NCBI RefSeq assembly: GCF_023667495.1
Contig: NZ_JAMOZL010000002.1
Span: 1-64,000, forward strand
Direction: 5' to 3'
DNA length: 64,000 bases
DNA from: Dyadobacter sp. MSC1_007
Lineage (GTDB): Bacteria > Bacteroidota > Bacteroidia > Cytophagales > Spirosomataceae
The position numbers and the translations under genes were made by a program. Of this stretch, positions 5,516 through 46,387 are shown one piece after another; position 1 is the stretch's first letter; each line of letters begins with the position of its first letter. The notes under the pieces were generated by a model. The model was not told where the DNA came from. It searched no databases and saw only the letters and a list, made by a program, of their open reading frames with translations.

Positions 5516-5534
5516 TTTTAAAATCGAATTAATC

Positions 5535-7145: not shown

Positions 7146-7163
7146 AACTGACACCTTTCCGAT

Positions 7164-7198
7164 AAACATCTCCGCGCGGTTCACGTGCGGAGATGTTT
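7164..7198 (+). terminator. Perfect 12-bp hairpin between susD and the GH89 gene
   Basis: AAACATCTCCGC (7164-7175) and GCGGAGATGTTT (7187-7198) form a perfect stem around an 11-base loop, 18 bases after the susD stop. Only three Ts follow, so it may be a weak terminator, an attenuator or an mRNA-stabilising stem. It could lower expression of the downstream enzyme relative to susCD. Confidence 0.6.
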
Positions 7199-7232
7199 GC
7201 ACGCGGGCAGATCCAATTTTAGCGATTTAATC

Positions 7233-14185: not shown

Positions 14186-14572
14186 ATGCGAAAAAACAGC
14201 TCAACGAACCTCGAAAACGAATTGCTGATCAATGGAAATTGTGGCATGGCCTACACATTGGACCTGATTGGTGGGCGTTGGAAGCCTTCGATCCTGTACA
14301 AGCTGCTGGAAGGAAGCACGCGTTACAGTCAGCTTCGGAAGACGATGCCGGCCGTTTCCGAGCGCATACTCATCCTGCAATTGCGTGAAATGGAAAGCGA
14401 TGGTTTGATCAGCCGCACGGTTTTCCCGGAAGTCCCGCCAAGGGTCGAATATCAGCTTACTGATCTGGGGAAAAGTCTTGAACCTGTGCTGCGTGTGTTG
14501 TCGGATTGGGGCGATGCCAACCGGCCGTCTAACGCAGGTAAATGGTCAGTTCCTGCCGAAGAAATGCGATAG
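14186..14572 (+). CDS. HxlR family winged-helix transcriptional regulator
   Basis: A 128-residue HxlR/MarR-like winged-helix regulator. The family signature is clear: CGMAYTLDLIGGRWKPSILY, then the recognition region YSQLRKTMPAVSERILILQL and the wing RTVFPEVPPRVEYQLTDLGK. The Cys near residue 18 is in the position of the redox- or aldehyde-sensing Cys of several HxlR/QorR/YodB members. It is divergent from the SDR gene and probably controls it and itself. Its 3' end overlaps the 3' end of the convergent ECF sigma gene by 44 bases, which is unusually tight. Confidence 0.93.
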   Translation: MRKNSSTNLENELLINGNCGMAYTLDLIGGRWKPSILYKLLEGSTRYSQLRKTMPAVSERILILQLREMESDGLISRTVFPEVPPRVEYQLTDLGKSLEPVLRVLSDWGDANRPSNAGKWSVPAEEMR

Positions 14573-15089
14573 TACGTGAAATATGGGCTTCGACTGTTTT
14601 AATTGAAACGCCCATCTGATCGGCTATTTTACTGTAAGTGAGCCCATTATGTCTGTTGAGATAATAGGCTTGCTGTGTCTTTTGAGGAAGCTTCGCCAGT
14701 GCGGCGTCATGCATTGACCGCAGTTCGGCCTCGTCCAGGCTTTCGCACAGGGTGTTATCCGCAACATCGCAGGTTTCCATTTCCAGGAAGGAGACGAGGA
14801 CTGTTTTTCTTTTTTTGGAAAGAACACGGATCGCATAATTACGCGTCATGACAATCAAATAGGCCTTGAAGTTGGTGATCTCGTACCCTTGAAGTTGCGC
14901 CCTGTTTTCCCAGAGCATAATGAATATATCCTGGATCCAATCCTTGATCAGTTCGGAGTCATCCGAATAGCGCATTAGGATCCGCACTAGCGTCGAATAA
15001 TATTTGTCAAACAAAATTTTGAATGCCTCGGTGTCGTCCCCCGCGATCAGTTCAACGAGCTGATGATCGGAAAATGTTGATTTATTCAT
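14529..15089 (-). CDS. ECF RNA polymerase sigma-70 factor
   Basis: An extracytoplasmic-function sigma factor of 186 residues. Region 2 is at about residues 22-90 (KILFDKYYSTLVRILMRYSD, LIKDWIQDIFIMLWENR). Region 4 is at about 125-175 (LPQKTQQAYYLNRHNGLTYS, then MGVSIKTVEAHISRTIAFLR). No FecR gene adjoins it. The nearest upstream genes on the strand are the amidohydrolase/M20/SusD/SusC series, whose far end carries an orphan FecR at 28134-29132. These two are plausible partners flanking one regulon. A 103-base gap separates it from the amidohydrolase gene, so it may have its own promoter as well as read-through. The 3' end overlaps the convergent HxlR gene by 44 bases. Confidence 0.92.
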   Translation of the reverse strand: MNKSTFSDHQLVELIAGDDTEAFKILFDKYYSTLVRILMRYSDDSELIKDWIQDIFIMLWENRAQLQGYEITNFKAYLIVMTRNYAIRVLSKKRKTVLVSFLEMETCDVADNTLCESLDEAELRSMHDAALAKLPQKTQQAYYLNRHNGLTYSKIADQMGVSIKTVEAHISRTIAFLRQELTIYLR

Positions 15090-15192: not shown

Positions 15193-18100
15193 TCATTTTG
15201 CCTCTGTAAGGGATTTAATATCCAGGTACTGCCCGTTCCTGATGACTGCTTTTACATTCAGGACGTCTTTGATCTGCTTCAACGGGTCCCCATCGACGAT
15301 CACCATGTCGGCGAGCTTACCAGCCTGAATCGTACCCAGGTCGCCGCCAACCCCAGCTTCCTGAGCGGCCCATTGAGTGGCTGCACGTAAGGTTTCGAAG
15401 GGGGAAAGCCCGGCAGCTACCCAGCTCTGAAGCTCGGCATGGTAGCTAAGCCCCGACGGAATGATGGGAGAGTCGGTGCCGGGAGTAAGCCGTGCGCCGG
15501 ACCTCATGAGCTGCACGATGCTTTTTTCGATATGATGGTACGTTTTGTTCGATCCGCTGGCTCTTTCAGCACCGGATTTCAGCTCTTGTTTTTGTTTTGA
15601 TGAATAAAATGCCTGGAATTGCCAATGGTCAAAAAACAAGCTGTCGCTGCCTATCAGGGCATTCAGTCCCCCGTGAAGCGAGATAGTCGGCGTCATATAC
15701 ATGCCGGATTTGGCGGTCAGGGCCAGAACATCCTGATAGCTCTTGTTCAATGCCGTCAGTTTGGGCGAATACCCTCGCCGGCTCGTCGCACCGATATGCT
15801 CGACACCGTCGACGCCTATGCCCGCTGCCGGATAGATTTCGTGCGACGATACCGGAAGCCCGTGCGCATGTGCAAATTCAGTCACCCGCTTTTGCAAGAT
15901 GTCCGGCAACCCCACATAGGTTTTGATCATATCGTAACCCAGCGTAACCGCCCGGCCGAGTTCCAGTTCCAGTTGCGCGCCAGCCACATTGCTGGTATTG
16001 CGGTTGTAATAGATCCTGTCGCCCTCCATATGCCCACCGGTAAAAAAGCTCCTCGGGCCCAGGCGCTTGCCGCTAGTCCAGGACTCTTTTCGCTCCAATG
16101 CATCGTAAGGGTCGGTTCCGGGTTCCCGGATGGAGGTCACCCCATACGCCAGCCATAATCTGCCGCCTTTTTCACCCAGTTGCGCATTCTGATGGGTATG
16201 CATTTCAAAAAGGCCGGGGATCACGGTTTGCCGCGAAGCGTCGATCACTCTTTCGTTTCGTCCTGCCCGATGTGGGACAATTTCCCTGATGCGGTTCCCC
16301 TCGATGACGATGTCGACATTCTCGATGTATTTGTTGGAGATCCCGTCGAAAACTTTTCCCGCGTGGATCACTTGCCGTCCCGCTGGCTGCTGCGGTTTCC
16401 AGCCGAATTCCATAGCCAGCGTTTCAATGCTCCCGTCAGCAACATTCACCCGCTTGATCTTGTCGGTAGCCAGAAAAACAATGCTTTTCGAATCACCTGT
16501 CCAGCTTGGGTTTTCCGCCAGCTCGGTGGTAAGCCGCAGGGGCGGGCCGATGATGTCGAGCCGCGCATCGACCGGGACAGTCCAGAGCACATTATCAAGA
16601 ATATAGGCGATTGCCTTGCCGTCGGGAGAAATCACCGGGCCGTTTTTGCCACGGGTAGCCAGCGAACGCCCCGGGACCGGCGATGCAAAACGTGCCTCCG
16701 ACCGGTCGGCTGGAATGATCAGGAATTTGCTGAGACCTTCCCGGAAACGGCTGGAATAGGGGTCCAGTGACGATACTGCCACATATTTGCCATCGCCCGA
16801 CCAGCTCGGTTGTGATGCTTCGAACAATCCTCCGTATAAGGTTTCGGTTTTTTTCGTCCTGATATCGATCACGGTGAGGTTACTGCGGCTGTAAGCCTTC
16901 GGGTCGGCCTGGTAAAAGGCGATGCTGTTGCCATCGGCCGACCAGCTCGGAAATTTCAGATTATCGGGTGCGTCCAGCAGGCAGGTGTCCTTTCCAGTGC
17001 TTATTTCCCGGATCCAGAGATCCATATTGCCGTTCCTGTCGCTGGTAAAGGCCAGCCATCGGTCGTCGGGGGACCACACGGGGTCAATATCGATGAATAC
17101 GTCGTTGGTGATCTGCACCGGCACGGGCTTCCCGATTTCCAGGACCCAGATATCGCCCAGCGCTGCAAAAGCTACAAACTTGCCGCTATTGGAAACGACG
17201 GGCCCGCGAATGCCTTGTACAGGCCTTTGCGCCGCATCGTCGAAATGGTGTTTTTTAGGTGCATATTTATTCCGGGCCAGCGTCACCTCGGCCTTAAAAT
17301 CGATCGTTTTCGCATTGTTCTTCCCCATCTTTCCGCGTTTGATCTGCCCGTCAGCGGTATATAAATATTCGGTTGGTGAGAGCCAGGCGGTTTTGAACGG
17401 AAATACATCCTCGGTGCCGGTTGACAGCGTTTGCCAGTCACCGCCGCCCATTTTTACCATTTCGAGTTGACTCGCATCGGGTACAAGGCTATTGAAAATG
17501 ATCCGCTGGCCGTCGGGATGCCAAACCGGTGAAGCCAGTTTTTCCTTGCTGTGAACAAACAGCTGATGATTTCCCTGCGCGTCCCGGATGTAGATACCTG
17601 CCGCTGCGGAACGCTCGGATACATACGCAATGCTCTGACCATCGGTGCTGAATGCAGGGAAATAATCATTGCCGGGATGCACGGTGAGTTGCGCCAGGCT
17701 GTCGTTTTTTAGAATGAGTTTCCAGATGTCATAATTGCTGCTGCGGTCGGAAGAGAATATAATGCTGGTGCCGTCCGGTGACCAATGCGGTTCACGGTCA
17801 TGGTAAATGCCGGTGGTCAGTTGTCGGAGCCCACTGCCATCCTTATTGATTTTCCAGATGTGGAAATTGCCGTCACGGTACGACTGGAAGGCGATCTGGT
17901 TTCCATCGGGCGACCAGGTGGGTTGCCGGCAGTCGCCGAGCGCGTCGGTAACGGCTTTGGCCCTGCCGCCGGTTACTGGTAACACCCATATCGTCCCCTG
18001 AAGGTCCATCGCGATCGTTTGCTTATCAGGAGAAAGTGCGATAGCCATATTGGTGCCCTCGGTGAGTGTAACTTTCACTGAATCAACGGTTGGGTTGGCA

Positions 18101-18207
18101 GATGCGTTGACAGCTGGTACTAAATGCAAAATGCCCGCCAGCATCATACTTGTGCTGGCAGACATCAACTTGAAAACGATGGAGCGCTTTTGCCGGTGAC
18201 GGGTCAT
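15193..18207 (-). CDS. TolB-like beta-propeller/amidohydrolase fusion protein (copy 1)
   Basis: A 1004-residue exported protein. A signal-like segment (LMSASTSMMLAGILHLVPAV) is followed by nine or so PD40/TolB-type repeats (W-S-P/A-D-G motifs near residues 98, 143, 188, 229, 378, 421, 468, 527 and 569) forming one or two propellers. From about residue 610 there is an amidohydrolase-superfamily domain. Its putative metal ligands are intact: His670-x-His672, Lys762 (candidate carboxylated lysine), His789, His804 and Asp912. Relatives include imidazolonepropionase-like and prolidase-like enzymes that hydrolyse C-N bonds, but the substrate is unknown. Its ATG overlaps the upstream M20 stop by four bases (ATGA), implying translational coupling. 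A close paralogue is two genes upstream. It probably acts in the periplasm or at the cell surface. Confidence 0.88.
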   Translation of the reverse strand: MTRHRQKRSIVFKLMSASTSMMLAGILHLVPAVNASANPTVDSVKVTLTEGTNMAIALSPDKQTIAMDLQGTIWVLPVTGGRAKAVTDALGDCRQPTWSPDGNQIAFQSYRDGNFHIWKINKDGSGLRQLTTGIYHDREPHWSPDGTSIIFSSDRSSNYDIWKLILKNDSLAQLTVHPGNDYFPAFSTDGQSIAYVSERSAAAGIYIRDAQGNHQLFVHSKEKLASPVWHPDGQRIIFNSLVPDASQLEMVKMGGGDWQTLSTGTEDVFPFKTAWLSPTEYLYTADGQIKRGKMGKNNAKTIDFKAEVTLARNKYAPKKHHFDDAAQRPVQGIRGPVVSNSGKFVAFAALGDIWVLEIGKPVPVQITNDVFIDIDPVWSPDDRWLAFTSDRNGNMDLWIREISTGKDTCLLDAPDNLKFPSWSADGNSIAFYQADPKAYSRSNLTVIDIRTKKTETLYGGLFEASQPSWSGDGKYVAVSSLDPYSSRFREGLSKFLIIPADRSEARFASPVPGRSLATRGKNGPVISPDGKAIAYILDNVLWTVPVDARLDIIGPPLRLTTELAENPSWTGDSKSIVFLATDKIKRVNVADGSIETLAMEFGWKPQQPAGRQVIHAGKVFDGISNKYIENVDIVIEGNRIREIVPHRAGRNERVIDASRQTVIPGLFEMHTHQNAQLGEKGGRLWLAYGVTSIREPGTDPYDALERKESWTSGKRLGPRSFFTGGHMEGDRIYYNRNTSNVAGAQLELELGRAVTLGYDMIKTYVGLPDILQKRVTEFAHAHGLPVSSHEIYPAAGIGVDGVEHIGATSRRGYSPKLTALNKSYQDVLALTAKSGMYMTPTISLHGGLNALIGSDSLFFDHWQFQAFYSSKQKQELKSGAERASGSNKTYHHIEKSIVQLMRSGARLTPGTDSPIIPSGLSYHAELQSWVAAGLSPFETLRAATQWAAQEAGVGGDLGTIQAGKLADMVIVDGDPLKQIKDVLNVKAVIRNGQYLDIKSLTEAK

Positions 18208-19724
18208 TGATCAACAGGTGTTGTTAAAATGGAATAGCAGGTTTTGATTCCGGACCGGAGGTTGCCGAGCCGGAGATTTTCATTAGGGCTATGCTGGTTG
18301 TTGTCCATGTTCACAAGCGGGACAATCACGGCTGGGACCCCGAGCGTCTGTATAAAAGGCACTACTGGCACCGAGCCGCCCATGATGCGAATGATAACAG
18401 GGTCGGTTTGAAAGGCGGCTTTCATGCTTTTTTTCAACCAGTGACCTATCGGGGAGTTGATTTCAGTCCGGAAAGCCGGGGAGCCGCCTCCGCCTCCGTC
18501 CATGAAGACTAGTTTGGGATACTTCACCCTTTCTGCCTTGGCAGGAACGTGGTCGACAACGTGATAGCCCAATCCTTCGAGGTGCGTTTTTACAAGACCG
18601 GTCATTCGTTTTCCATCTGTTTCGGGCACGAGCCTGATGCCGAATTCCGCAATAGCTTGTTCTGGGATGATCGACCCGCCTCCTTTGCCGACCACCGCCG
18701 CTTTCAGGCCGCGGACGTTCAGGGAAGGGTATTGCATCGATTCCTGGTAGTTTTTCCCAACTTTTTCTTCTGCCGCGATTTGCAGCCTGTCGTTAATGTC
18801 GGCCGTTACGTCGGGTACGGCGGCCATTACTTTGGCAGCCTGATCATCGAAGGTAATGCCATCGTAAAAGCCTTTAATCAAAACCCTGCCCTCCTCGTCC
18901 TTCATCGATGCGATGATCCTGGACAGGCTGAATGTCGGATCAGGCGAGTAATTTCCGAAATGCCCGCTGTGTTGTTGGGTAATTGCCCCATAAGTCGTTA
19001 ATGAGAAGCCCGTACCGCCCCGGCAGCCGAAAGTCAGGGTAGGGAGGTTCGAAGAATGCATCGGGCCATCCATGACGATCAGATAGTCTGCCGCCAGCTC
19101 TTTCTTATAGGTCGCCAGCGCGTCTTTCAGGCCCGGCGAACCCTTTTCTTCTTCACAATCCAAAACGACTTTGATATCGAAAGGCGGTTGCTGCCCACGT
19201 GCGGACAGCATGTCCATTGCCTGTAAAAACATCACAATTGGGCCTTTGTCATCGGATGTCGACCGACCGAATAGCCGCCATTCGTCGTTGATCTTTCCAT
19301 TCGCAAGCAATGCCCAATCGATTTGATTGAATGTGCCGGTTGCATCTTTTTCTTTCAAAACCGACTCATAGGCATTGGGCTGGAACCATTCCTGCTGCCG
19401 CACGGCCTGGCCATCGAGATGAAAGTAAAAAAGCACTGTCTTGCGATTTCCCGGGAAAGCCTTCCGGGCCAGAAACAGGGGCATCTTGCCGGTTTTGAGA
19501 ACAGAAGTCCCGAAACCCCTTTTTGCAAATGCTTTATCAGACCACTGTATATTTTTTTCGATGTCCTCGGCCACTAGCGCGTCGTTGGGGATTGCCACAA
19601 AATCTTTCAGCTCTTCAATGGCTGCCGGCATCCTCTCACTTACCAACTGGTCGCTCTGCTGGGCGATACCCCGAAGGCAGATCAGCGAACAAAACATTGC
19701 GGCTTGAATGGTCTTCAAAATCAT
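18204..19724 (-). CDS. M20 family metallopeptidase (dipeptidase), exported
   Basis: A 506-residue co-catalytic zinc peptidase with a signal peptide (IQAAMFCSLICLRGIAQQ). The M20 active-site set is complete: His102-x-Asp104 in FYFHLDGQ, the bridging Asp158 in GRSTSDDKG, the Glu-Glu pair in CEEEKGS at about 191-193, Asp219 in VMDGPMHSS, and the late His in NNQHSPNE near residue 478. The lid/dimerisation domain is in the middle. It resembles the long CPG2/Dug1-type dipeptidases. It sits between two paralogous propeller-amidohydrolases, nine bases after one and overlapping the next by four. All three are therefore likely to work in sequence on the ligand taken up by the upstream SusC/SusD. Confidence 0.93.
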   Translation of the reverse strand: MILKTIQAAMFCSLICLRGIAQQSDQLVSERMPAAIEELKDFVAIPNDALVAEDIEKNIQWSDKAFAKRGFGTSVLKTGKMPLFLARKAFPGNRKTVLFYFHLDGQAVRQQEWFQPNAYESVLKEKDATGTFNQIDWALLANGKINDEWRLFGRSTSDDKGPIVMFLQAMDMLSARGQQPPFDIKVVLDCEEEKGSPGLKDALATYKKELAADYLIVMDGPMHSSNLPTLTFGCRGGTGFSLTTYGAITQQHSGHFGNYSPDPTFSLSRIIASMKDEEGRVLIKGFYDGITFDDQAAKVMAAVPDVTADINDRLQIAAEEKVGKNYQESMQYPSLNVRGLKAAVVGKGGGSIIPEQAIAEFGIRLVPETDGKRMTGLVKTHLEGLGYHVVDHVPAKAERVKYPKLVFMDGGGGGSPAFRTEINSPIGHWLKKSMKAAFQTDPVIIRIMGGSVPVVPFIQTLGVPAVIVPLVNMDNNQHSPNENLRLGNLRSGIKTCYSILTTPVDQ

Positions 19725-19733
19725 ATGGCGTGC

Positions 19734-22700
19734 CTATTTGTTGGATTGAAAGCCTTGTAATGCAGGCTTGTCGGACAGGTGCCTCGTCTTTAAAATTTCT
19801 TCGATTGGCAGTATTTCGCCATTCCGGACGACCGTATGCACATTCAGGACATCCTTAATGTTTTTGAGCGGATCCCCGTCAATAATGACCAAATCGGCGA
19901 GCTTCCCGTTCTCGAGAGTACCCAAATCTTTGGCAATACCCAATGCCTCGGCCGAGTATAATGTTGCTGACCGCAGCGTCTGAAAGGGCGAAATGCCGCC
20001 ATCCACCCAGCTCTGCAACTCGGCATGGTAGCTGATCCCCGGATGTATAATCGGGGAATCAGTGCCGGGCGTGACGTGCCCTCCGCGTTCTACCATGGTT
20101 TTGACCGTTCTCTGGATATTTGGAAATGTGGTTAAAAAAGCCGGGTTCATTTTGGCCCGCAATGCGGTTTGCGCTTTCATCTGTCCCACAACATCGGATG
20201 TATAAAAAGCAGCGAATTGTTTATGGTCGAAGAAGGCAGGATCTTTATCAACCAGCATAGGCAGCCCGCCCTGCAAGGAAGCGGTAGGCGTGATATTCAT
20301 TCCTGACTTGATCAGCAGTTCGGTAACGTCCTGATACGAATTGTTCATCGCCGAAAGCTTGGGTGAGTATCCTCTGCGGCTTGTCGCGCCCATATGTTCC
20401 ACCGCGTCGACACCGTAGCGGGTGGCCGGATAAATTTCGTGGGAAGATACCGGCACTCCAATCGAATGGGCAAAGGCGGTAATGCGCTGCTGCATGAGGT
20501 CGGGCATCCGCACATAAGTTTTGATCATGTCGTAATCCAGTCGCTTAGCTTTTTCCAATTCCAGTTCCAGTTGCGCCCCGGGAACATTGCCGACATTCAT
20601 ACCATAATAGATCCGGCTGCCGTCCAGAATCCCGCCTGTATAAAAATCGCGGGGCCCGAGCCTGCGCCCACTAATCCAGGATTCCTTGCGCTCGATAACA
20701 TCATAGGGCTCGCCGCCCGGCTCGCGAATCGTGGTGATACCATAGCTCAGCCACAACCTGCCGAGCGGTTCGCCGGCAGCAGCCGACTGGTGCGTATGCA
20801 TTTCGATCAGGCCCGGGATGACAGTCCGGGAAGACGCATCGATGAGCTTTCCTGTCCGGCCCTCTTTATGAGGTTCTATGCTGACGATGCGGTTGCCATC
20901 GACAATTACGTCTACATTAGTGCGGTAACCGTCGGTTTTGCCATCGAAGAGTTTTCCGGCGTGAATGACGTAACGACCTGTCGGCTGACGGGCCTTGTAA
21001 GTGAGCGTGACCGGGATGTTCTCAATAGCACCACTTACAATCGAGACTTTTTTCAGAGCATCCGTGGCCATGTATACGATGCTTTTCGAATCACCCGTCC
21101 AGCTTGGATTTTCCGCCAGCTCATTGGTGAGCCTGCGGGGAGCGGCAAGCAAGTCGCCGGTACCGTTCACAGCGACAGTCCATAGCGCGCCATCCATTGA
21201 GAATGCGAATTTGCTGCCGTCGGGTGACCAATATGGTCCGTTTTTCCCACGGGTGGACAGCGTTCTTTCATTGATTGGTGTAACATAACGATAGCTTTTG
21301 TCGGCTGTCGAAATGATCAGGAATTTGCTGACGCCCTCGCGGTAACGGGTCGAGTAGGGGACCAGTGACGAAATGATAACGTATTTGCCGTCCGGTGACC
21401 AGCTGGGTTGTGAGCCGTCGAAAACCGGGTCGAAGATGATGGTGGATTTGCCGGAGCCAATGTCGATGATCCTGAGAGAAGAACGCCCGAATACAGCCGG
21501 GTCTTTTTGATAATAGGCGATCTGCTTTCCATCTGCCGACCAGGCAGGCAGTGTAAGTGGCGTCTCTGCGTCGAGCAGCAAGGTTTCCTTGCCGGTAGCC
21601 ATCTCACGCACATATAGGTCCATGTCGCCCTTGCGGTCGCTCAGGTAGGCAAGCCATTGGCCGTCGGCAGACCATGCCGCATCGATTTCAATGAATTCGT
21701 CGTTGGTCAGCGGTGTGGGGACCGGGCTGCCTTTTTTGAGCAGATACATATCTCCCAATGCAGTGAAAGCGACGCTGTTGCCGTCCGGCGAGACCGCTGG
21801 CCCGCGGATACCTTTAACGGGCCGTGCGTTTGTCGCATTAAAATCATACTTTTTGAATGCATAGGTATTTTTTTGCAATGTCATTTGGACCGAAAAAGGG
21901 ACCGAAAGCTTTTTCGCCTCACCCAGCTTGCCGCGGTTGATCTTGCCGTCGGACGTATACAGATATTCGGTATCGGAAACCCAGGCGGCTTTGAAAGGGA
22001 ACACGTCCTCGCCGTTTGCAGAAAGGGTTATCCATTCCCCGCCGCCGATCATGGCCATGTCCAGCACGGTTTTTCCTTCGATAAAATTATGAAAAACGAT
22101 TTTGGGCTGACTTGGATGCCAGATGGGTGCGCCGAGTTTGCCGGTTGTGGTTAGAAACAATTTCTCCTTGCCAGAGGTATCCATGATATAAATGCCCGGG
22201 GCTGCGGTTCGTTCTGAAACGTAGCTGATCTGCGCGCCGTCGGAAGAGAAAGCCGGAAAATAGTCGTTTCCCGGATCGCTTGTAAGCTGGGTAAGCTTGC
22301 CGCTTGCCGGTTCGAGTTGCCAGATGTCGTAGTTGCCGCTTCTGTCGGAGGAAAAAAGCAGCCGGGTGCCGTCCGGCGACCAGCAGGGCTCGCGATCGTC
22401 GAAAGTACCGAATGTGTGCTGTATGGGAGCCCCGCCGTTTTTCCCAACCGAATAAATGTGAAAATTGCCATCCCAGAAAGCCTGGAAGGTAATTTTAGAG
22501 CCATCGGGTGCCCACACAGGCTGGCGGCAATCCCCGAATTCGTCGGTCAGCGGGCGGGCATTGCCGCCTTCTGCCGGAATGGTGAAAATGGTGCCTTGCA
22601 GATCCATCGCAATGGTCTTTTTGTCGGGCGAAAGGGCAATGGCGAGGTTGGTCCCTTCCGTTAGGGTTACCTTCACCGAGTCAGCCGACAACGCCGCGGC

Positions 22701-22769
22701 TTCAACCGTAAGCAGTACCGCCTGCATGAAAAGCAGCGCCAGAATTTTTTGATTGTGAGAAAAGATCAT
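19734..22769 (-). CDS. TolB-like beta-propeller/amidohydrolase fusion protein (copy 2)
   Basis: About 1011 residues, a paralogue of the gene two positions downstream. The mature N-terminus (DSVKVTLTEGTNLAIALSPD) and the whole propeller are alignable with copy 1. The amidohydrolase domain keeps the same ligands: His-x-His in EMHTHQ, Lys in DMIKTYV, His in SSHEIYP, His in VEHMGATSRRGY and Asp in TPGTDSP. The ATG at 22769 was chosen because it gives a clean signal peptide (HNQKILALLFMQAVLLTVEA). A TTG at 22811 would overlap the SusD stop but adds a polar leader. It lies 38 bases after susD. Retention of all ligands in both copies suggests two active enzymes, perhaps with different specificity. 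Confidence 0.87.
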   Translation of the reverse strand: MIFSHNQKILALLFMQAVLLTVEAAALSADSVKVTLTEGTNLAIALSPDKKTIAMDLQGTIFTIPAEGGNARPLTDEFGDCRQPVWAPDGSKITFQAFWDGNFHIYSVGKNGGAPIQHTFGTFDDREPCWSPDGTRLLFSSDRSGNYDIWQLEPASGKLTQLTSDPGNDYFPAFSSDGAQISYVSERTAAPGIYIMDTSGKEKLFLTTTGKLGAPIWHPSQPKIVFHNFIEGKTVLDMAMIGGGEWITLSANGEDVFPFKAAWVSDTEYLYTSDGKINRGKLGEAKKLSVPFSVQMTLQKNTYAFKKYDFNATNARPVKGIRGPAVSPDGNSVAFTALGDMYLLKKGSPVPTPLTNDEFIEIDAAWSADGQWLAYLSDRKGDMDLYVREMATGKETLLLDAETPLTLPAWSADGKQIAYYQKDPAVFGRSSLRIIDIGSGKSTIIFDPVFDGSQPSWSPDGKYVIISSLVPYSTRYREGVSKFLIISTADKSYRYVTPINERTLSTRGKNGPYWSPDGSKFAFSMDGALWTVAVNGTGDLLAAPRRLTNELAENPSWTGDSKSIVYMATDALKKVSIVSGAIENIPVTLTYKARQPTGRYVIHAGKLFDGKTDGYRTNVDVIVDGNRIVSIEPHKEGRTGKLIDASSRTVIPGLIEMHTHQSAAAGEPLGRLWLSYGITTIREPGGEPYDVIERKESWISGRRLGPRDFYTGGILDGSRIYYGMNVGNVPGAQLELELEKAKRLDYDMIKTYVRMPDLMQQRITAFAHSIGVPVSSHEIYPATRYGVDAVEHMGATSRRGYSPKLSAMNNSYQDVTELLIKSGMNITPTASLQGGLPMLVDKDPAFFDHKQFAAFYTSDVVGQMKAQTALRAKMNPAFLTTFPNIQRTVKTMVERGGHVTPGTDSPIIHPGISYHAELQSWVDGGISPFQTLRSATLYSAEALGIAKDLGTLENGKLADLVIIDGDPLKNIKDVLNVHTVVRNGEILPIEEILKTRHLSDKPALQGFQSNK

Positions 22770-22807
22770 TCGGTTATGGTCGGTTTGGCGGATTACTGAA
22801 CAATTTA

Positions 22808-24262
22808 TCAAAGATTTACCGGTGTTTTTACAAAAACTCCTGGGACCGGGCGTGGGGCGCTGGTATTCGAGTTTACTTCTGCTTCGCTGTAAACCATGCG
22901 CTCAGGCAAAGTGCTTCCGGCGCTGGGGGGCAATTTCACAGCCACAGCTTCTTTTCTGGTCCGTCTCAGGTCATTGAAACCCAATATCTGCCCGTTAAAA
23001 GTCAGGTACCGTTCCATCAGGATCTCGCGCAGCAATGCCTGCTCGGCCTGAATGCCGTCTTTGTTGAGGATACCACCGGCCGCTACATCTTCCGTGGTAT
23101 AAGGTTCATAGCGGTAAGTGAAAGTCTTGTAGGTAGGGTCCAGATCACCTCCGGCATGCAGGTAAGCGCGGAAAGTATTCAGCTTTTCCAGTCCGGTCGC
23201 AAGCCCGCCGCTTCTCAATCCGGCTTCGGCCAACGTGAGCAGGTTTTCCGAATAGGTAATTAACGGATACGGGGCTGATTGGCCGAATAGCCCTCTGGAA
23301 GTGGTGGTGCTGTTGGTATTAGGCGAGACAGGGATCGCAGTGCCGCTGGCATTTACTGTAATGAAATGATGATTGTAGCGGGCCGTTTCGTCGGTTTTTG
23401 CATTGCCGTGGTAGGTCGGGCTAGCCGGGTTCAACAGTTTCGGTGCCAGCGCCAGCGATGCATTGATATCACCCACGCGGCTTCTGGCGATAAAGGCGTA
23501 CATCAGGTTTTCGTTCACGTTCAGCGTGGTGCCGTGCGTGACCACAAGCGAGCGAGCCGTGGTTTTAATACCCTTTTCAGCCGCGGCATAGGCCAGTTTA
23601 TATTCCCTGGTTTCCATATAAAACCGCGATTTGAGTGTGTAGGCAGCTTCTTTCCATTTACCGGCATCCCCCTGGTAAAAAATGTCGGCTGCGCCCGGAG
23701 AAGTGCCGACGCCCGATTCCAAGTCGGCGATACCTTCGTCCAGCAATGCCTGCAACTTTTTGTAGACTTCCAGCTGAGGCTCGAAAGCAGGATTTGGAAA
23801 GCGGGCGATGTCGGCAGCCTCGGAAAAAGGGATGTCGCCCCAGCAGGCAGCAGCGGTACCCAGCGCATTGGCGCGGGTGATCTTTGCGATGCCCTGCACG
23901 AGCCGGTTATTGGTAGCTTCGGATTTGGTGACCACCAGTTTGGTCTGTTCCACGACCCCCTGGTATACGAACTGCCAAACGTCGTTAAATGAGGCTCCGG
24001 TGACGTTATAGCTGTAAATGTCTTTGTACTGGCGGTCGGTGCCGGTGAAATATCCCGACCACATGGCGGCTACGCGCGCCAAATGGCCTTCCTGCACCGA
24101 AACGTTGCCCAACTGGGCGCCGGTCAGGATTAGCGAAGCCGAAGCGTCGGTGGGGTTGTTCAGGTCGGTATTCATGTTATCGACCAGCGATTCACAGGAG
24201 ATGAGCCCGGCTACCAGCATCAGGCTGGTTATTTTGATCAGTTTCCTTCTTGTCGTTTTCAT
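22808..24262 (-). CDS. SusD/RagB family outer membrane lipoprotein
   Basis: About 484 residues. The ATG at 24262 gives a lipoprotein signal peptide (KLIKITSLMLVAGLISC), Cys followed by ESLVDN; a TTG four codons earlier is less likely. SusD-type features include the TGAQLGNVSVQEGH opening helix, WQFVYQGVVEQTKLV, the ALGTAAACWGDIPFSEA motif, the helical repeat core, and LLREILMERYLTFNGQILGF near the end. It is 51 bases downstream of susC and 38 upstream of an amidohydrolase gene. It is the ligand-binding lid of the SusC partner. The enzymes behind it suggest an amide- or peptide-containing ligand instead of a plain glycan; this is inference. Confidence 0.93.
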   Translation of the reverse strand: MKTTRRKLIKITSLMLVAGLISCESLVDNMNTDLNNPTDASASLILTGAQLGNVSVQEGHLARVAAMWSGYFTGTDRQYKDIYSYNVTGASFNDVWQFVYQGVVEQTKLVVTKSEATNNRLVQGIAKITRANALGTAAACWGDIPFSEAADIARFPNPAFEPQLEVYKKLQALLDEGIADLESGVGTSPGAADIFYQGDAGKWKEAAYTLKSRFYMETREYKLAYAAAEKGIKTTARSLVVTHGTTLNVNENLMYAFIARSRVGDINASLALAPKLLNPASPTYHGNAKTDETARYNHHFITVNASGTAIPVSPNTNSTTTSRGLFGQSAPYPLITYSENLLTLAEAGLRSGGLATGLEKLNTFRAYLHAGGDLDPTYKTFTYRYEPYTTEDVAAGGILNKDGIQAEQALLREILMERYLTFNGQILGFNDLRRTRKEAVAVKLPPSAGSTLPERMVYSEAEVNSNTSAPRPVPGVFVKTPVNL

Positions 24263-24313: not shown

Positions 24314-27300
24314 CTAATAATTTACTTTGATAGTAAACAAATAGGAGCGGGTGCCGGGCGTATTGAAATAGTCCATATTGCGACCGGCTGGCCCTCCGGA
24401 AAGGTTAGTGTCCGGGTCGATCCCTACTACTTTGGTCCATAAAAACAGGTTACGGCCGGTCATCGAAAACTCCACCGATTGCAGTTTGGTAGCCTTCCGG
24501 AATGCTTCGGTATCCAGCCGGTAGGATAGCGAAAGCTGCCGCAGGCGCGTCCAGCTCCCATCTTCTACAAATTGCTGTTTTAACGACCCGAACCCGCTTC
24601 CAAGCGTGGTATACCAGCTTTCATCGAGCAGTACGGGGCCTGCGCCGAAGTCTTTCAGATTGCCACGGACAGTGGTTCCGGCGGGAATAGTCTTACCTGC
24701 ATAGTTTTTAGTGTCAGCAGTGAGCGTTACCTCATTACCCGTGTCGCGGTGGGTGCCGAAATTGTACATCACGCCCCGGGTGCCGCTGAAATAGTCGCCG
24801 CCCTGCGAGGTTTCAAATAGTACATCAAGGCTGAACTTCTTGTATGAAAATGTTGTCCCGAAACCGCCGATCCAATCCGGGTTAGGGTTGCCCACTACGC
24901 CGGTGACTGGGTCTGCCACCGGAAACCCATTGGCGTCCAGCGTCATCGAACCATCTTCCTTTAACAGATAGCGGCTGCTCCAGAACACCCCCGTAGGCTG
25001 CCCGACCACCGCACGGGCATCAAGGAAATTCTCAATGCCGCCCACCAGGTACAGCGATTGTGTACCTGCCAGATCGAGGACTTTGCTGCGGTTTCGGGTG
25101 AAATTCCCGCGAACGGCCCAGTTAAACCCGCCCTTGCGGATCACCTCATAGCTCAGGTCGGTTTCGAAGCCTTTGTTCTGGAGTACCGCGGCGTTGGTGT
25201 ATTTGGTAGCGAAGCCTGTGCTCGGGGCTAGTGTTACAGGTACCAGCACGTCGCGTACCTTGTTGTTATAGTAGGTTAATCCCAATTTCAGCCTGTTATC
25301 AAGCAGGCGCATGTCCAGCCCTATTTCATGCTCGGTTTTTCTTTCGGGTTTCAGATATTGGTCGCCCATAGAGCTGCCCTGCGAATAGGCGCCGTTTCCG
25401 AATTGGGAACCTACCAGGTTGTCGCCCCAGGGATTGGCGCTGTAAACGGTGGAGGAATAGATCGTGTTGGAGCGGTAGGGGAGCGGCTGAACACCCACCA
25501 CGCCGTAAGACGCGCGCAATTTGGCGAAGTTAATGGCTTCTACGCGCTCCATCCATTTCAGTTTGGTAAAAACCCAGGCCACGTCGGCCGACGGGTAATA
25601 GAATGTTTTATCTGAAAGCGTACCAAAAGAAGAGGCCGATTCGGCGGCGCCCGACAGGTTCAAAAACAATGCATCATAAGCCGAGAAACTGGCAGTCGCG
25701 TAGGCACGGACGGTCCGGACTTCGGTTTTTAGGTTCACAGGCGTACGGTTGAGCGCCGTAGCGTTGGCAAAGTTTGCAGGTGCGTCGGCCACAAGGAAAT
25801 TGGAGATGGTCACCCCCATGTTGTTGTATTTGCGGTTATTGATGTTCACGCCCGCGACGTAGGTGGAGCTGAAATTGGGGCCGAAATCTTTGGTAGCGCG
25901 GCCCAGCAGGTCGGCATTCACCTGGGTTTCTTTGGTGATCTGCTCCCTATATTGGCCGGTTCCGGCGCCGGTAATATCGTTGACCGGAAAGTAGTTGATT
26001 TGCTCGTCCGAGTAGGTGTCGAGTCCGGCGCGGGCTATGATATCCAGCCAGGTTGCGGGCTTGATCCCGAGTTCTGCACTGTTCATGAAACGGTCCACAT
26101 CGGTTGAGTTCTGCTGTTTGTAAAGAGCCCAAAGCGCGTTATTGTTGGCCGGGTTGATGACGCTGCCCAGGTAGCTGCGGTAGCCCCGTTGGCGCCCAGT
26201 GATAGGCGAGGCTGTTGGATTGGCATAATAGCTTCCCTGATAGTCGGAGATGTCAAAATCTGCCGGGTTCCGCAAAAGGCCTACCATGGCACCGGCCAGG
26301 TTGTTGCCCCGCTGGATCCTGTCCGAAAAGCTTTTGGTGTAGGCGGCCGTGGCCGACATGCGTATCACTTCGTTAAACTTGCGCTCCACATTCAGTCGCA
26401 GGGTGGTGCGGTTGTAGGTGCTGTTCCCGCGTTGCACCCCTTTCTGGCGAATGTCGCCGATACTGAAAAAGTAGGTGGTTTTTTGATCTCCTCCGCTCAG
26501 GCTCAGCGCATTGTCGATAAAGTGGCCGTCGCGAAAAACCTTGTCGTAGTTGGAGTCGTTGAAGGCCTCTTTTGAATTCTTTTTGATAATAGGATAATAC
26601 CTGGTGCCATCGGCCGCCTCGAAAAAAGCGCCGCTCGTATTGACATCGTCTACGCTACCGCTGCGGTCTGCGATCCTGTCGCCCCATGCATTGGCCCCGT
26701 TTGGATTGTAAACACCTGCGGCGCCTTGTCCGAATTTATCCTGAAACGGATGAAAACGGTTGATCTGGTCAATGGAAAAGGTAGAACTGAAACCGATATT
26801 GAGCTTATTAGTGTCGGCCCCTTTTTTAGTAGTGATTAAAATTACGCCGTTTGCAGCGCGTGAGCCCCACAATGCGGCTGCCGAAGCTCCTTTCAGGATC
26901 TGCATGGACGCGATATCATTGGGATTGATGTCGTTGAGCCTCGACTGGGGTACTACGCCGCCCGAAGTGCCGCCTTCCGTGGTGTTGCTGATCGGAATGC
27001 CGTCTACCACGATTAGCGGCTGCGTGTTGCCCGTGAGCGTGTTCTGGCCGCGAATCTGGATAAATGCAGCTGCACCCGGATCTCCGGCGGCCCTGGATAT
27101 CTGTACACCTGCTGCTTTGCCCGCCAATCCATTGATCACACTGGTCTCGCCCGACCTTGTGAGCGATTCCCCGGCGACTTTGCTGCTGGTAGAACCCAGC
27201 CGGTCGGCGGCCTCCTTGAACCCCGATGCGGTAACTACAACTTCCGAAAGGGCCTGGACGTTTTCTGCCAGGACTACATTCAAAGTCGATTGGTTAGCAA

Positions 27301-27928
27301 TAGCGATTTCCTGTGTAACGAACCCGATATAAGAGAACACCAGCACGCCTTCCGTTGACGGTACTTCAATGGTGAATGCGCCCTGTTCGTCGGTAACGGT
27401 GCCTATGTTGGCTCCTTTCAAAAGTATGTTGACCCCGGGAATCCCGCTTTGGGTGGCCTTATCGGTCACTTTACCGGTTATGCCGAATGCCTTATTGTCA
27501 TAACCCGAACCCGCATCGACTTTGAGCAGAAAACTGGGTGAGTCGCCCGTGTTCCTGATCGGGATCCTGGGTGCGCTTTCTTCTTTATAAAGCAGGTAAA
27601 ACCCTTCACGCGATCTCCGGTAATGTACTTTGGAGTCTTTCAGGACGGTTTCGAGCATGCTTTCGATCGTGGCGTCCTTGCCGGGCGGGATCAGCAGCTT
27701 TCGATCGATCTGAATCTGGTCGATGAGTCCCGTCTGGTAGGCGATAGACACATTGAATTGCCCTTCAAGCGCTTTGAGCCCGTCTTTTAACTGGATATAC
27801 TGCGATTGCTGAGACTGATGAGCCCGGCGGCTTTCCCGGAGATACGAAACCATCTGTCCCTGAGTGCAGACCGGATAGCCGATCAGCCCTAAAAGCATGT
27901 ATAGTGCAATCCTGGAAATGTTTTTCAT
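24314..27928 (-). CDS. SusC/RagA TonB-linked outer membrane protein with STN domain
   Basis: A TonB-dependent importer of 1204 residues, the longest gene product in the window. The signal peptide is ISRIALYMLLGLIGYPVCTQ. An STN domain spans about residues 47-115 (LKALEGQFNVSIAYQTGLID). A linker leads to the carboxypeptidase-like domain (GITGVTD-type, about 148-228) and the plug (VVVTASGFKEAADRLGSTSS). The barrel ends in SYLFTIKVNY. The STN domain implies FecR-linked signalling, matching the FecR gene 205 bases upstream. It forms the uptake complex with the SusD immediately downstream. Confidence 0.95.
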   Translation of the reverse strand: MKNISRIALYMLLGLIGYPVCTQGQMVSYLRESRRAHQSQQSQYIQLKDGLKALEGQFNVSIAYQTGLIDQIQIDRKLLIPPGKDATIESMLETVLKDSKVHYRRSREGFYLLYKEESAPRIPIRNTGDSPSFLLKVDAGSGYDNKAFGITGKVTDKATQSGIPGVNILLKGANIGTVTDEQGAFTIEVPSTEGVLVFSYIGFVTQEIAIANQSTLNVVLAENVQALSEVVVTASGFKEAADRLGSTSSKVAGESLTRSGETSVINGLAGKAAGVQISRAAGDPGAAAFIQIRGQNTLTGNTQPLIVVDGIPISNTTEGGTSGGVVPQSRLNDINPNDIASMQILKGASAAALWGSRAANGVILITTKKGADTNKLNIGFSSTFSIDQINRFHPFQDKFGQGAAGVYNPNGANAWGDRIADRSGSVDDVNTSGAFFEAADGTRYYPIIKKNSKEAFNDSNYDKVFRDGHFIDNALSLSGGDQKTTYFFSIGDIRQKGVQRGNSTYNRTTLRLNVERKFNEVIRMSATAAYTKSFSDRIQRGNNLAGAMVGLLRNPADFDISDYQGSYYANPTASPITGRQRGYRSYLGSVINPANNNALWALYKQQNSTDVDRFMNSAELGIKPATWLDIIARAGLDTYSDEQINYFPVNDITGAGTGQYREQITKETQVNADLLGRATKDFGPNFSSTYVAGVNINNRKYNNMGVTISNFLVADAPANFANATALNRTPVNLKTEVRTVRAYATASFSAYDALFLNLSGAAESASSFGTLSDKTFYYPSADVAWVFTKLKWMERVEAINFAKLRASYGVVGVQPLPYRSNTIYSSTVYSANPWGDNLVGSQFGNGAYSQGSSMGDQYLKPERKTEHEIGLDMRLLDNRLKLGLTYYNNKVRDVLVPVTLAPSTGFATKYTNAAVLQNKGFETDLSYEVIRKGGFNWAVRGNFTRNRSKVLDLAGTQSLYLVGGIENFLDARAVVGQPTGVFWSSRYLLKEDGSMTLDANGFPVADPVTGVVGNPNPDWIGGFGTTFSYKKFSLDVLFETSQGGDYFSGTRGVMYNFGTHRDTGNEVTLTADTKNYAGKTIPAGTTVRGNLKDFGAGPVLLDESWYTTLGSGFGSLKQQFVEDGSWTRLRQLSLSYRLDTEAFRKATKLQSVEFSMTGRNLFLWTKVVGIDPDTNLSGGPAGRNMDYFNTPGTRSYLFTIKVNY

Positions 27929-28133: not shown

Positions 28134-29132
28134 CTATTGGACCAGCATCAACTGATTATCTTTCTTGACGAAATGTAATTCAAACAAACTGGAAATATCC
28201 TCGATAAGGGTTTGGGCGTGTGTAGAGGACAATGGAATAGAGCCCGATGCCCTTTTGGTGAGCAGCTCCTGGTTTTCTACCTGGACTGTCACACCATAAT
28301 TTTCTTCGACTTTTTGCAGCATTTCTTCTAATGAAGTGCCGTCGAGGCGCCAGCGCCCGTGCGTCCAGGACGAATAGGTTTCGGGATTGACAACCTCCTT
28401 TGCGGTTACCTGCGAGCCATTGTCATTGATCCGTACCATATCGCCGGGCCTCAGGTAGACCGGTTTTTCTTTTCCTGCCAGGCTCAGCCTGATACTTCCC
28501 GATTTAAGGACAATGCAGCTTCTGGTATGCCTGTCGATGACGTTGAATTGTGTGCCCAGCACCTGGATATTCTTGCCGTCCGATAAATGGACCGTAAAAG
28601 TCGAGTTTCTGCGGAGATGTTTTATGTCGAAAAAGGCTTCACCTTCCAGCCAGATCTCCCGCGGTCCTCCCTTCCATATTGCCGGGTACCGAAGCCTGCT
28701 GTTGCCGTTCAGTACCACCTGAGAGCTGTCGGGCAGCGTAATGTGGCGCGTTTGTCCGTATGCGGCTTGTATGTACACCGTTTCCGATCGTTTCAGCCAC
28801 ATCCAGCAAAGTGAACAGACCAGCAACATGCTTGCGGCAATGGCCAGATATCTTTTCAGGTTGTATTGACTGCTGTAAGGGTTAAGGTGCTTTTTTCTGT
28901 TGTCCTGCGTATTAAGGAGTCGCTCCTGCGTGCCGGACCAGACCTGCTCCCGGGACATCATCAGTTCGGCAAGGTTTCCCTGATAGTCTTCCGACGCATT
29001 TTCATTGTTCCATTCCAATGCCATCGTAGCGTTGTCAGGATGTAATGCAAGCCACCTTTCGACCACCCTGTTTTGTTCCCGGGTGGTCTTTCCAGTAAAG
29101 TAATGCATGACAAGCTGTTTGGTAACTTCCAT
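28134..29132 (-). CDS. FecR family anti-sigma factor
   Basis: A 332-residue anti-sigma/sensor. The cytoplasmic part covers about residues 1-92. It is followed by a transmembrane helix (YLAIAASMLLVCSLCWMWL, about 94-112). The periplasmic FecR domain (AYGQTRHITLPDSSQVVLNG, LEGEAFFDIKH) and a short C-terminal DUF4974-like domain (RWRLDGTSLEEMLQKVEENY) follow. It is the first gene of the minus-strand series and precedes an STN-type SusC. No sigma gene stands upstream of it, as the next 417 bases are intergenic. The only sigma factor left without a partner is at the other end of the series (14529-15089). Confidence 0.92.
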   Translation of the reverse strand: MEVTKQLVMHYFTGKTTREQNRVVERWLALHPDNATMALEWNNENASEDYQGNLAELMMSREQVWSGTQERLLNTQDNRKKHLNPYSSQYNLKRYLAIAASMLLVCSLCWMWLKRSETVYIQAAYGQTRHITLPDSSQVVLNGNSRLRYPAIWKGGPREIWLEGEAFFDIKHLRRNSTFTVHLSDGKNIQVLGTQFNVIDRHTRSCIVLKSGSIRLSLAGKEKPVYLRPGDMVRINDNGSQVTAKEVVNPETYSSWTHGRWRLDGTSLEEMLQKVEENYGVTVQVENQELLTKRASGSIPLSSTHAQTLIEDISSLFELHFVKKDNQLMLVQ

Positions 29133-44430: not shown

Positions 44431-44459
44431 TCTTTTGAAATTTTAAAACAGATATTCCA

Positions 44460-46142: not shown

Positions 46143-46171
46143 ATATTCAGTAGTACCACCGGTTTGAAGAG

Positions 46172-46215
46172 AATAAAGTCCATGTGCAATCTGTTTGCAT
46201 ATGGACTTTATTTTT
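46172..46215 (+). terminator. Strong rho-independent terminator after the fourth SusD gene
   Basis: An 18-bp stem formed by 46172-46189 (AATAAAGTCCATGTGCAA) and 46195-46212, with one G-T wobble and a five-base loop, is followed by further Ts. It cleanly separates the susCD pair from the downstream subtilase gene. Confidence 0.9.
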
Positions 46216-46387
46216 GCGTAGCTTTTTCTAATACACTTTACTCTTTCAAAAATATAGTTGGATAATAGACGTTGTTTGACACGATATATGCCAGCTCCGC
46301 GTATCATTGATTTAGAAAACTATCCTCAAAAACTGCATGATGAAATTTGTACGCTTCTCTATTTAAATACTTGACCAGGTACATATC

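What the first reader, a model, noticed from the sequence alone, without database searches (positions are those of the whole stretch)
15193..24262. Uptake unit with two paralogous propeller-amidohydrolases enclosing an M20 peptidase
Behind a SusC/SusD pair lie a propeller-amidohydrolase, an M20 dipeptidase and a second propeller-amidohydrolase, spaced 38, 9 and -4 bases. Both fusions keep a full amidohydrolase ligand set (in copy 1: His670, His672, Lys762, His789, His804, Asp912). This looks like a SusCD-type locus devoted to C-N bond hydrolysis instead of glycan breakdown. The substrate could be a peptide, an N-acylated compound or a cyclic imide-like molecule. I know of no characterised example with exactly this order.
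Basis: partly seen in the sequence, partly recalled or inferred. Interest (0 to 1): 0.7.

Follow-up and report, generated by a model that had tools for sequence, protein, structure and literature searches.

The report
Peptide-type uptake locus with propeller-amidohydrolases
A Dyadobacter-type bacterium carries neighbouring genes that probably import small amide-linked molecules such as modified peptides and cut their carbon-nitrogen bonds with unusual two-part enzymes, and relatives use the same type of importer beside quite different amide-cutting enzymes.

Summary
On the minus strand lie FecR, SusC, SusD, a propeller-amidohydrolase (AH1), an M20 peptidase, a second propeller-amidohydrolase (AH2) and an ECF sigma factor, spaced 38, 9 and -4 bases after SusD; both amidohydrolases keep all six metal ligands.
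The exact order is narrow: seen here and in two close Dyadobacter relatives. Three others carry AH1-AHx-M20-AH2, so the 'sandwich' probably arose by loss of AHx.
More widely conserved is a tie between this SusC/SusD type and amide-bond hydrolases. Of 390 genomes of the order, 31 hold the propeller-AH, 21 of these with a SusD relative within 12 kb. Of 30 SusD relatives at 48% identity or more, 22 lie beside amide hydrolases of three kinds: propeller-AH 14, penicillin amidase 6, gamma-glutamyltranspeptidase 2. Control: 3 of 20 other SusD loci of this genome.
Most likely it is an uptake-and-cleavage locus for short or modified peptides or N-acyl amino acids; the substrate is inferred. SusCD peptide importers are known; this operon type was not found in print by the searches made. 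New variant of a known kind.

The parts
28134..29132 (-). FecR-type anti-sigma factor, first gene of the unit
   Evidence: Pfam FecR and FecR_C; upstream of SusC also in L061, L066, L070
24314..27928 (-). SusC/RagA TonB-dependent outer-membrane transporter
   Evidence: NCBIfam TIGR04056, 621.8 bits, cut-off 368.25, and TIGR04057
22808..24262 (-). SusD-like lipoprotein lid (ATG at 24262; N-terminus ends LISC, lipobox-like, read by eye)
   Evidence: Pfam PF12771 98.9 bits, PF12741 70.4 bits, cut-off 27; start codon read
19734..22769 (-). AH1, propeller-amidohydrolase with signal-like N-terminus (by eye)
   Evidence: PD40 and Amidohydro_1/3; ligands H672, H674, K764, H791, H806, D918 in the numbering from the TTG at 22811 (motif positions); 38 bases after SusD
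18204..19724 (-). M20 metallopeptidase, CNDP2/DUG1-like, with signal-like N-terminus (by eye)
   Evidence: Peptidase_M20 and M20_dimer; best solved relatives are cytosolic non-specific dipeptidase and Cys-Gly dipeptidase DUG1; motif residues D158/D159, E191-193, D219, H478 lie in the significant alignment, H102 only in a 1-bit stretch
15193..18207 (-). AH2, second propeller-amidohydrolase, the divergent paralogue
   Evidence: PD40 and Amidohydro_1/3; model with mean pLDDT 89.2, pTM 0.87; ligands H670, H672, K762, H789, H804, D912
14529..15089 (-). ECF sigma factor at the end of the unit, presumed partner of the FecR at its start
   Evidence: Sigma70_r2/r4_2; at the end of the unit also in L061, L062, L063, L064, L068, L070 and L079, L085, L090 (L080, L081, L082, L093 are contigs already counted)

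Best explanation
A non-glycan SusCD utilisation locus for short amide-linked compounds, most likely small or modified peptides or N-acyl amino acids. SusC/SusD imports the compound into the periplasm. The exported propeller-amidohydrolases, each with a propeller part (probably two propellers) in front of a binuclear-metal amidohydrolase domain, hydrolyse an amide bond near the carboxyl end, as prolidases and arginine carboxypeptidases of the same domain family do; the propellers act as a sieve or docking surface. The M20 enzyme splits the remaining dipeptides. AH1 and AH2 differ in specificity. The FecR/ECF sigma pair switches the unit on. Shown: gene content, domain families, intact ligands, recurrence of the SusCD-AH tie, separate paralogue groups. 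Inferred: periplasmic location, division of labour, role of the propellers, substrate class, regulation.
For: A SusD relative lies within 12 kb of the propeller-AH in 21 of 31 AH-carrying genomes of 390 searched (in 5 of the 21 that SusD is only 36-38% identical); about 0.19 hits expected from position alone against 21 of 45 seen. Distances of AH and adjacent SusC correlate, Mantel r 0.48, 0 of 2000 permutations (33 loci; shared descent contributes). Of 30 SusD relatives at 48% identity or more, 22 lie beside amide hydrolases: AH 14, penicillin amidase 6 and gamma-glutamyltranspeptidase 2; control 3 of 20 other SusD-like_2 loci of this genome. Two bridging loci hold both sets: L113 (SusC-SusD-AH-M20-type-penicillin amidase) and L068 (AH1-AHx-M20-ECF-PmbA-TldD-PmbA). 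AH domain: best Foldseek hits are Xaa-Pro dipeptidase 2qs8, Thermonema amidohydrolase 9kov, arginine/lysine carboxypeptidase 3mtw and ochratoxin amide hydrolases. M20: nearest solved relatives are dipeptidases, and in L183 and L186 M20 relatives lie directly beside an S9 propeller oligopeptidase.
Against: No substrate or activity is shown. AH scores fall far below the curated cut-offs of the families shown (Xaa-Pro dipeptidase NF051886 108 and 103 against 500), so specificity is open. M20 relatives outside Dyadobacter/Pontibacter are not beside a propeller-AH or this SusCD (0 of 20 loci), so M20 is not a fixed partner. 10 of 31 AH genomes lack a SusD relative within 12 kb, and 28 of the 60 named loci with a called AH gene show no SusC/SusD of this type in the stretch held (some stretches are short). 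In the control genome 3 of 20 other SusD loci also carry amide hydrolases, so this SusD family may favour non-glycan compounds in general. Of 12 SusD relatives at 44-47% only 2 are near an AH; five of them, all Dyadobacter, lie beside a PKD protein, four of the five also with a FAD oxidoreductase, and the other five were not resolved.
Confidence: 0.62

Rival explanations
1. The locus imports a specific small non-peptide N-compound (for example an N-acyl homoserine lactone, a hydantoin or imide, or a phenylurea or thiocarbamate-like xenobiotic). The two AHs act in sequence on it and M20 removes an acyl group.
For: The same amidohydrolase fold includes imidazolonepropionase, phenylurea hydrolase and molinate hydrolase; penicillin-amidase-type enzymes beside related SusCD include acyl-homoserine lactone acylases (recalled).
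Against: Best structural and sequence relatives are peptide/amide hydrolases, with the xenobiotic hydrolases lower. The M20 protein scores higher with dipeptidase-type than with deacylase-type models and its solved relatives are dipeptidases. Gamma-glutamyltranspeptidase and TldD/PmbA beside related SusCD point to peptide bonds.
Confidence: 0.2
2. An ordinary polysaccharide or glycoconjugate locus in which the AHs are de-N-acetylases or accessory enzymes.
For: SusCD loci are classically for glycans; the window holds a NAGLU SusCD locus at 2162-9488; amidohydrolases include N-acetylglucosamine-6-phosphate deacetylase (weak hits); a gene of the PIG-L deacetylase kind is present in 7 fetched AH loci (Pfam on one; the rest by BLAST).
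Against: No glycosidase or lyase in the unit and none among the 25 of 27 families listed for 34 chosen neighbours of AH or of related SusCD. NagA-type hits are very weak (22.7 and 26.7 bits against a cut-off of 225.65). M20 and S9 are peptidase families.
Confidence: 0.08
3. The enzymes merely sit beside a SusCD with an unrelated task; the M20 and the second AH are hitch-hikers.
For: M20 is free-standing elsewhere (0 of 20); AH2 relatives are detached from SusCD in L071, L072 and L073, and an AH1 relative in L089.
Against: The SusCD-AH tie recurs in Spirosomataceae, Flavobacteriaceae, Pontibacter and Flammeovirgaceae, with SusD-AH gaps of 4-58 bases in 9 of the 14 loci measured (ORF starts are mechanical).
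Confidence: 0.1

Closest known systems
RagAB of Porphyromonas gingivalis and Bt2261-64 of Bacteroides thetaiotaomicron (SusCD peptide importers; passages of PMC7782687)
   Same: SusC/SusD pair that binds oligopeptides instead of glycans in a large solvent-excluded cavity
   Different: I recall no propeller-amidohydrolase or M20 genes in those units (not checked). No sequence comparison of this SusD with RagB was made here
COG1228-type amidohydrolases (the COG name recalled): Xaa-Pro dipeptidase 2qs8, arginine/lysine carboxypeptidase Cc2672 (3mtw), prolidase 3n2c, ochratoxin hydrolase ADH3 (8ihs)
   Same: Amidohydrolase domain fold (target TM 0.69-0.80 for these and 9kov) and the metal-binding HxH and GTD motif regions
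   Different: These are about 400 residues without propellers; only 19-24% identity; the window enzymes carry about 560 extra residues of propeller strands
Tricorn protease (1k32) and propeller peptidases of family S9 (Dpp5, lasso-peptide isopeptidase AtxE2)
   Same: Propeller domain(s) joined to a peptidase domain; tricorn is Foldseek rank 11; the NCBIfam lasso_peptidase model hits the propeller at 105.5 bits
   Different: Serine catalysis and a different catalytic domain; the similarity is in the propeller only
Metal-dependent bile salt hydrolase of Bilophila (PMC13081902: abstract, section list and passages seen)
   Same: Secreted amidohydrolase-superfamily enzyme that cuts an amide of a conjugated small molecule
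   Different: The text has no 'propeller', 'TolB' or 'PD40', and its three 'susc' matches are forms of 'susceptible'; host group is Desulfovibrionaceae
CNDP2 / DUG1 dipeptidases (family M20)
   Same: M20 gene aligns over about 350 residues with four of the five metal-ligand motifs in the significant stretch
   Different: Exported here by the look of its N-terminus; score for dipeptidase PRK08201 is 199.4 bits against a cut-off of 441

Membership tests
SusC/SusD uptake system | SusC with RagA/SusC signature directly followed by SusD lipoprotein | tested here: met
   TIGR04056 621.8 bits (cut-off 368.25), TIGR04057 59.6 (46.2); PF12771 98.9 (27); 51 bases apart
Glycan utilisation locus (PUL) | Glycoside hydrolases or polysaccharide lyases in the unit | tested here: not met
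   Pfam of all seven genes of the unit
Amidohydrolase superfamily with binuclear metal and carboxylated lysine | Six ligands HxH, Lys, His, His, Asp | tested here: met
   Positions checked in both copies, invariant in 59 of 59; metal content itself not testable
Xaa-Pro dipeptidase (NCBIfam NF051886) | Score above the curated cut-off of 500 bits | tested here: not met
   108 (AH2) and 103 bits (AH1)
Lasso-peptide isopeptidase (NCBIfam NF033523) | Score above the cut-off of 400 bits, S9 catalytic domain | tested here: not met
   105.5 and 78.6 bits, best stretches in the propeller; no Peptidase_S9 hit
M20 peptidase | Pfam M20 catalytic and dimerisation domains | tested here: met
   PF01546 62.1 bits (24.6), PF07687 30.8 (21)
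M20 dipeptidase (curated) | Score above the curated dipeptidase cut-off | tested here: not met
   PRK08201 199.4 against 441
SusCD peptide importer (RagAB type) | Binds and imports peptides | not testable with these tools
   Only gene context supports it

The most novel reading that the evidence does not exclude
One SusC/SusD lineage in Bacteroidota is a dedicated importer for modified or N-substituted peptides (for example peptide natural products from competitors), and its members have repeatedly exchanged their hydrolases: tricorn-like propeller metallo-amidohydrolases, penicillin-amidase plus S9 (mostly plus TldD/PmbA) sets, or gamma-glutamyltranspeptidase. In marine relatives an N-methyl-amino-acid-oxidase-like enzyme lies between AH and SusC (L116, L118, L138, L140), which would fit release of a C-terminal N-substituted amino acid. 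The propeller-AH would be a new class of sieve-gated metallopeptidase.
Probability: 0.2. Interest if true: 0.75.

Novelty: new variant of a known kind. Interest (0 to 1): 0.5.

Why it matters
SusCD annotation is usually read as 'glycan'. A SusCD type that can be recognised by sequence and is tied to amide hydrolases of unrelated folds would let one predict non-glycan loci across Bacteroidota. It also gives a testable family of propeller-bearing metallo-amidohydrolases, for which no solved full-length relative was among the matches shown.

Tried and rejected
Rejected: that the order SusC-SusD-AH-M20-AH is itself the conserved functional unit (other orders and counts are at least as common). Rejected: M20 as an obligatory partner. 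Rejected: membership of the AHs in the Xaa-Pro dipeptidase or lasso isopeptidase families. Considered and not supported: bile-salt-hydrolase kinship.

Led nowhere: promoter scan (22 promoter-like sites against a mean of 13.3 in shuffles, none decisive; 18 terminator-like against 19.2). The VIA-align library was not on the machine. The paper on COG1228 prolidases was not held. Active-site geometry of AH1 against AH2 was not compared in space, because I had no model coordinates to read; only sequence differences were listed. The second structure job was not used.

Literature (open-licence PMC text only; listings seen unless said otherwise): SusC, SusD, amidohydrolase, peptidase and operon together, 0 papers; SusC, amidohydrolase, TolB and propeller, 1 paper, on a plant GWAS pipeline; SusD, penicillin amidase, TonB-dependent and Bacteroid, 0; TonB-dependent, SusD, amidohydrolase, Bacteroid and gene cluster, 1, on wetland sediments; lasso peptide isopeptidase, Bacteroidetes and TonB-dependent, 0; Dyadobacter and amidohydrolase, 4, none on such a locus by title and abstract start; COG1228, prolidase and amidohydrolase, 8; peptide-SusCD searches (8 listed) and 1. 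Passages were read in PMC7782687 and, in its reference list only, PMC7618045.
Full report
OBSERVATION. The genes are as described. On the minus strand: FecR 28134-29132, SusC 24314-27928, SusD 22808-24262, AH1 19734-22769, M20 18204-19724, AH2 15193-18207, ECF sigma factor 14529-15089. Both copies keep all six; so do 25 of 25 proteins of the genus, the two window copies included, and 59 of 59 of a wider set, again with the two window copies (that set was found partly through the HTH and VEH motifs).

WHAT THE ENZYMES ARE. AH2 was modelled from 59 aligned sequences with mean pLDDT 89.2 and pTM 0.87: a low-confidence start (1-38), beta strands from about 41 to 600 (taken as two propellers from the strand pattern; blades not counted), then an alpha/beta amidohydrolase domain. 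Foldseek against the PDB (50 of 1896 matches shown) gives, for the catalytic domain, Xaa-Pro dipeptidase 2qs8, a Thermonema amidohydrolase 9kov, arginine/lysine carboxypeptidase 3mtw and ochratoxin-hydrolysing amidohydrolases, at 19-24% identity. The propellers resemble TolB by sequence and, by fold, tricorn protease among many propellers. No solved protein with both parts is among the 40 matches or the 50 shown. Curated cut-offs of the enzyme families shown are not reached. The M20 protein aligns with CNDP2 and DUG1 dipeptidases over about 350 residues; four of five metal-ligand motifs lie in that stretch, the first (H102) only in a 1-bit stretch.

HOW FAR THE ORDER IS CONSERVED. Among 36 same-genus genomes 8 hold an M20 orthologue at 75-87% identity. 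Their neighbourhoods: G003 has exactly the window's order; G034, G030 and G004 have SusC-SusD-AH1-AHx-M20-AH2-ECF (the SusC of G034 is split into two ORFs; L063 of G030 holds a run of N); G013 has AH1-AHx-M20-ECF behind SusC-SusD; G026 has AH1-AHx-M20 behind SusC-SusD; G023 has AHx-M20 behind FecR-SusC-SusD; G019 has AHx-M20 without SusCD in the stretch. Two more genomes of the genus lack M20: G029 has SusC-SusD-AH-AH-ECF and G036 has SusC-SusD-AH only. Dyadobacter endophyticus (L079) also has the window's order; L080 of that scan is the same contig as G003. A tree of 74 propeller-AHs (quick method) puts AH1, AH2 and AHx in separate groups of 8, 12 and 10 rows, each with support 100. AHx falls with the Pontibacter enzymes L088 and L111 and with L130 (support 92, below the tool's 95 mark); in L088 and L111 M20 also directly follows the AH. 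M20 directly follows AHx in seven of seven Dyadobacter loci that hold both (L062-L068). Against a fixed pair: two other members of the AHx group, L070_5775 (G029) and L136, and L130 beside it, show no M20. The simplest reading is still that M20 came to lie behind AHx and that the window's lineage lost AHx, leaving M20 between AH1 and AH2. AH2 is the odd one: at positions 726, 728, 735, 736, 766 and 767 it has H, E, N, R, G, L where AH1 and AHx share one residue or a similar one (I/L, D, G, M/L, R, M), each fixed in the 8 AH1, 9 AH2 and 8 AHx rows compared, which suggests a changed specificity.

M20 ALONE. Of 390 genomes of the order, 119 hold a relative at E 1e-60 or better. I fetched the surroundings of 20 of those matches (65% to 43% identity): 0 of 20 lie beside a propeller-AH above 300 bits or this SusC/SusD (L187 has a SusC-like ORF of 28% identity nearby). 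Three more (L075, L076, L077) also lack them. In two of the 20 (L183, L186) M20 lies directly beside an S9 propeller oligopeptidase, which fits a dipeptidase role.

THE CONSERVED TIE. In the same 390 genomes, 31 hold a propeller-AH at E 1e-150 or better and 73 a SusD relative at E 1e-50 or better. In 21 of the 31 a SusD relative lies within 12 kb of an AH; in 5 of the 21 it is only 36-38% identical. By position alone about 0.19 such hits would be expected among the 45 SusD hits in AH genomes, against 21 seen (a rough estimate that ignores kinship). SusD relatives at 55% or more lie near an AH in 6 of 6 cases, at 48-54% in 8 of 24, at 44-47% in 2 of 12, and below that in 5 of 50. In the named-contig scan (62 loci, 60 with a called AH gene) SusC or SusD of this type is in the stretch in 32 of 60, absent from it in 28, and M20 is present in 9 (7 Dyadobacter, 2 Pontibacter). 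Four of the 28 (L121, L125, L127, L133) hold a SusC of 25-28% identity. SusD, found in 31, is on the AH strand in 26 and divergent in 5. AH and SusC distances correlate (Mantel r 0.48, 0 of 2000 permutations; AH-SusD 0.45; SusC-SusD 0.98; 33 loci of 38 after removing duplicates), to which shared descent contributes. In a phylum-wide draw only 4 of 296 genomes hold the propeller-AH at that threshold.

WHAT ELSE THE SAME SUSCD TYPE SITS BESIDE. I looked at the surroundings of all 30 SusD relatives at 48% identity or more (the window is one of the 30). Beside an AH within 12 kb: 14. Beside a penicillin amidase: 6 (L193, L194, L195, L201, L215, L216; all six with an S9-family hydrolase and five of six with TldD and PmbA). 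Beside gamma-glutamyltranspeptidase: 2 (L192, L198). Together 22 of 30. The other eight: L196 and L199 have a sortilin-type propeller protein next in line (in L196 the AH lies at the other end of the same contig, so the unit may be whole if that contig is circular, which I could not test), and in L197, L200, L202, L203, L205 and L218 no relative of these enzymes was found by BLAST (their neighbours were not all scanned against Pfam). Two loci bridge the sets: L113 (Pontibacter silvestris) has SusC-SusD-AH-M20-type enzyme-penicillin amidase, with an S9 relative of 71% identity upstream of SusC, and L068 has AH1-AHx-M20-ECF followed by PmbA-TldD-PmbA (58-71% identical to those of L194). In marine relatives (L116, L118, L138, L140) a FAD amine-oxidase-like protein lies between AH and SusC (Pfam DAO and N-methyl-L-tryptophan oxidase model at 210 bits against a cut-off of 257 for L116; the others by BLAST). 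The 12 relatives at 44-47%: 2 near an AH (L220, L221), 5 in Dyadobacter beside a PKD protein (L189, L190, L191, L222, L223; four of the five with a PF12831 FAD oxidoreductase), 5 not resolved (L204, L206, L224, L225, L226). So the tie fades with distance.

CONTROL. From the window's own genome (53 PF12771 matches) I took 20 of the 21 strongest matches outside the unit, leaving out one split match (two of the stretches overlap). I scanned 38 downstream same-strand genes from 16 of the 20; three others had no same-strand gene in line and one stretch ended with its contig. Three of 20 loci carry an amide hydrolase (two deacetylase-type amidohydrolases, L239 and L243; one M20, L247). Penicillin amidase, gamma-glutamyltranspeptidase and glycosidases were not among the 25 of 44 families listed. 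22 of 30 against 3 of 20 gives Fisher p 6e-5; counting only same-strand genes downstream of SusD, 15 of 30 (counted by eye) against 3 of 20, p 0.011. The two sides were not collected identically (up to 12 kb either side against about 8 kb downstream) and the 30 are not independent, so these are indications.

MECHANISM. Shown: content, motifs, fold prediction, the SusCD tie. Inferred from family knowledge: import of a short amide-bonded compound by SusCD (peptide-binding SusCDs exist: RagAB and Bt2261-64, passages of PMC7782687), hydrolysis at or near the carboxyl end by AH1 and AH2 with the propellers limiting access as in tricorn (recalled), and final dipeptide cleavage by M20. Regulation by FecR and an ECF sigma factor placed at the end of the unit is inferred from gene place only.

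NOVELTY. SusCD peptide import is known; propeller-AHs tied to one SusCD type, multiplied to three per locus, and three unrelated amide hydrolase kinds beside the same SusCD type were not found by the searches named in Tried and rejected. I rate it a new variant of a known kind, interest 0.5.

Noticed in passing
window 14529-15089 and 28134-29132: The ECF sigma factor lies at the far end of the unit and FecR at its start, instead of an adjacent pair; the sigma factor is also at the end in L061-L064, L068, L070, L079, L085 and L090, while L086 has an ECF-like gene upstream of FecR.
   Followed up: partly
L183 and L186 (genus g23): M20 relative directly beside a 657-residue S9 propeller oligopeptidase.
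   Followed up: partly
L116, L118, L138, L140: AH - FAD amine-oxidase-like protein - SusC - SusD in line in marine bins. L118 and L140 are titled Thalassobius and Thalassovita (Pseudomonadota), but what look like the same contigs (L217, L219; same lengths) are in genomes placed in the window's own order, so the titles may be wrong.
   Followed up: partly
window 2162-9488: A separate SusCD locus with an alpha-N-acetylglucosaminidase (NAGLU) gene.
   Followed up: no
window 41389-47584: SusCD pair followed by a subtilase (S8), possibly another peptide-type SusCD locus.
   Followed up: no
L062:16426-19981: SusC of G034 is split into two ORFs, so the transporter may be broken there although the AH and M20 genes read as full ORFs.
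   Followed up: no
L065, L066, L086, L102 after M20, and L233 in the window's own genome: An aminotransferase (PF00155) and a 364-366-residue protein without Pfam match follow M20 in relatives and, judged by their first residues, also follow another SusD in the window's genome.
   Followed up: partly
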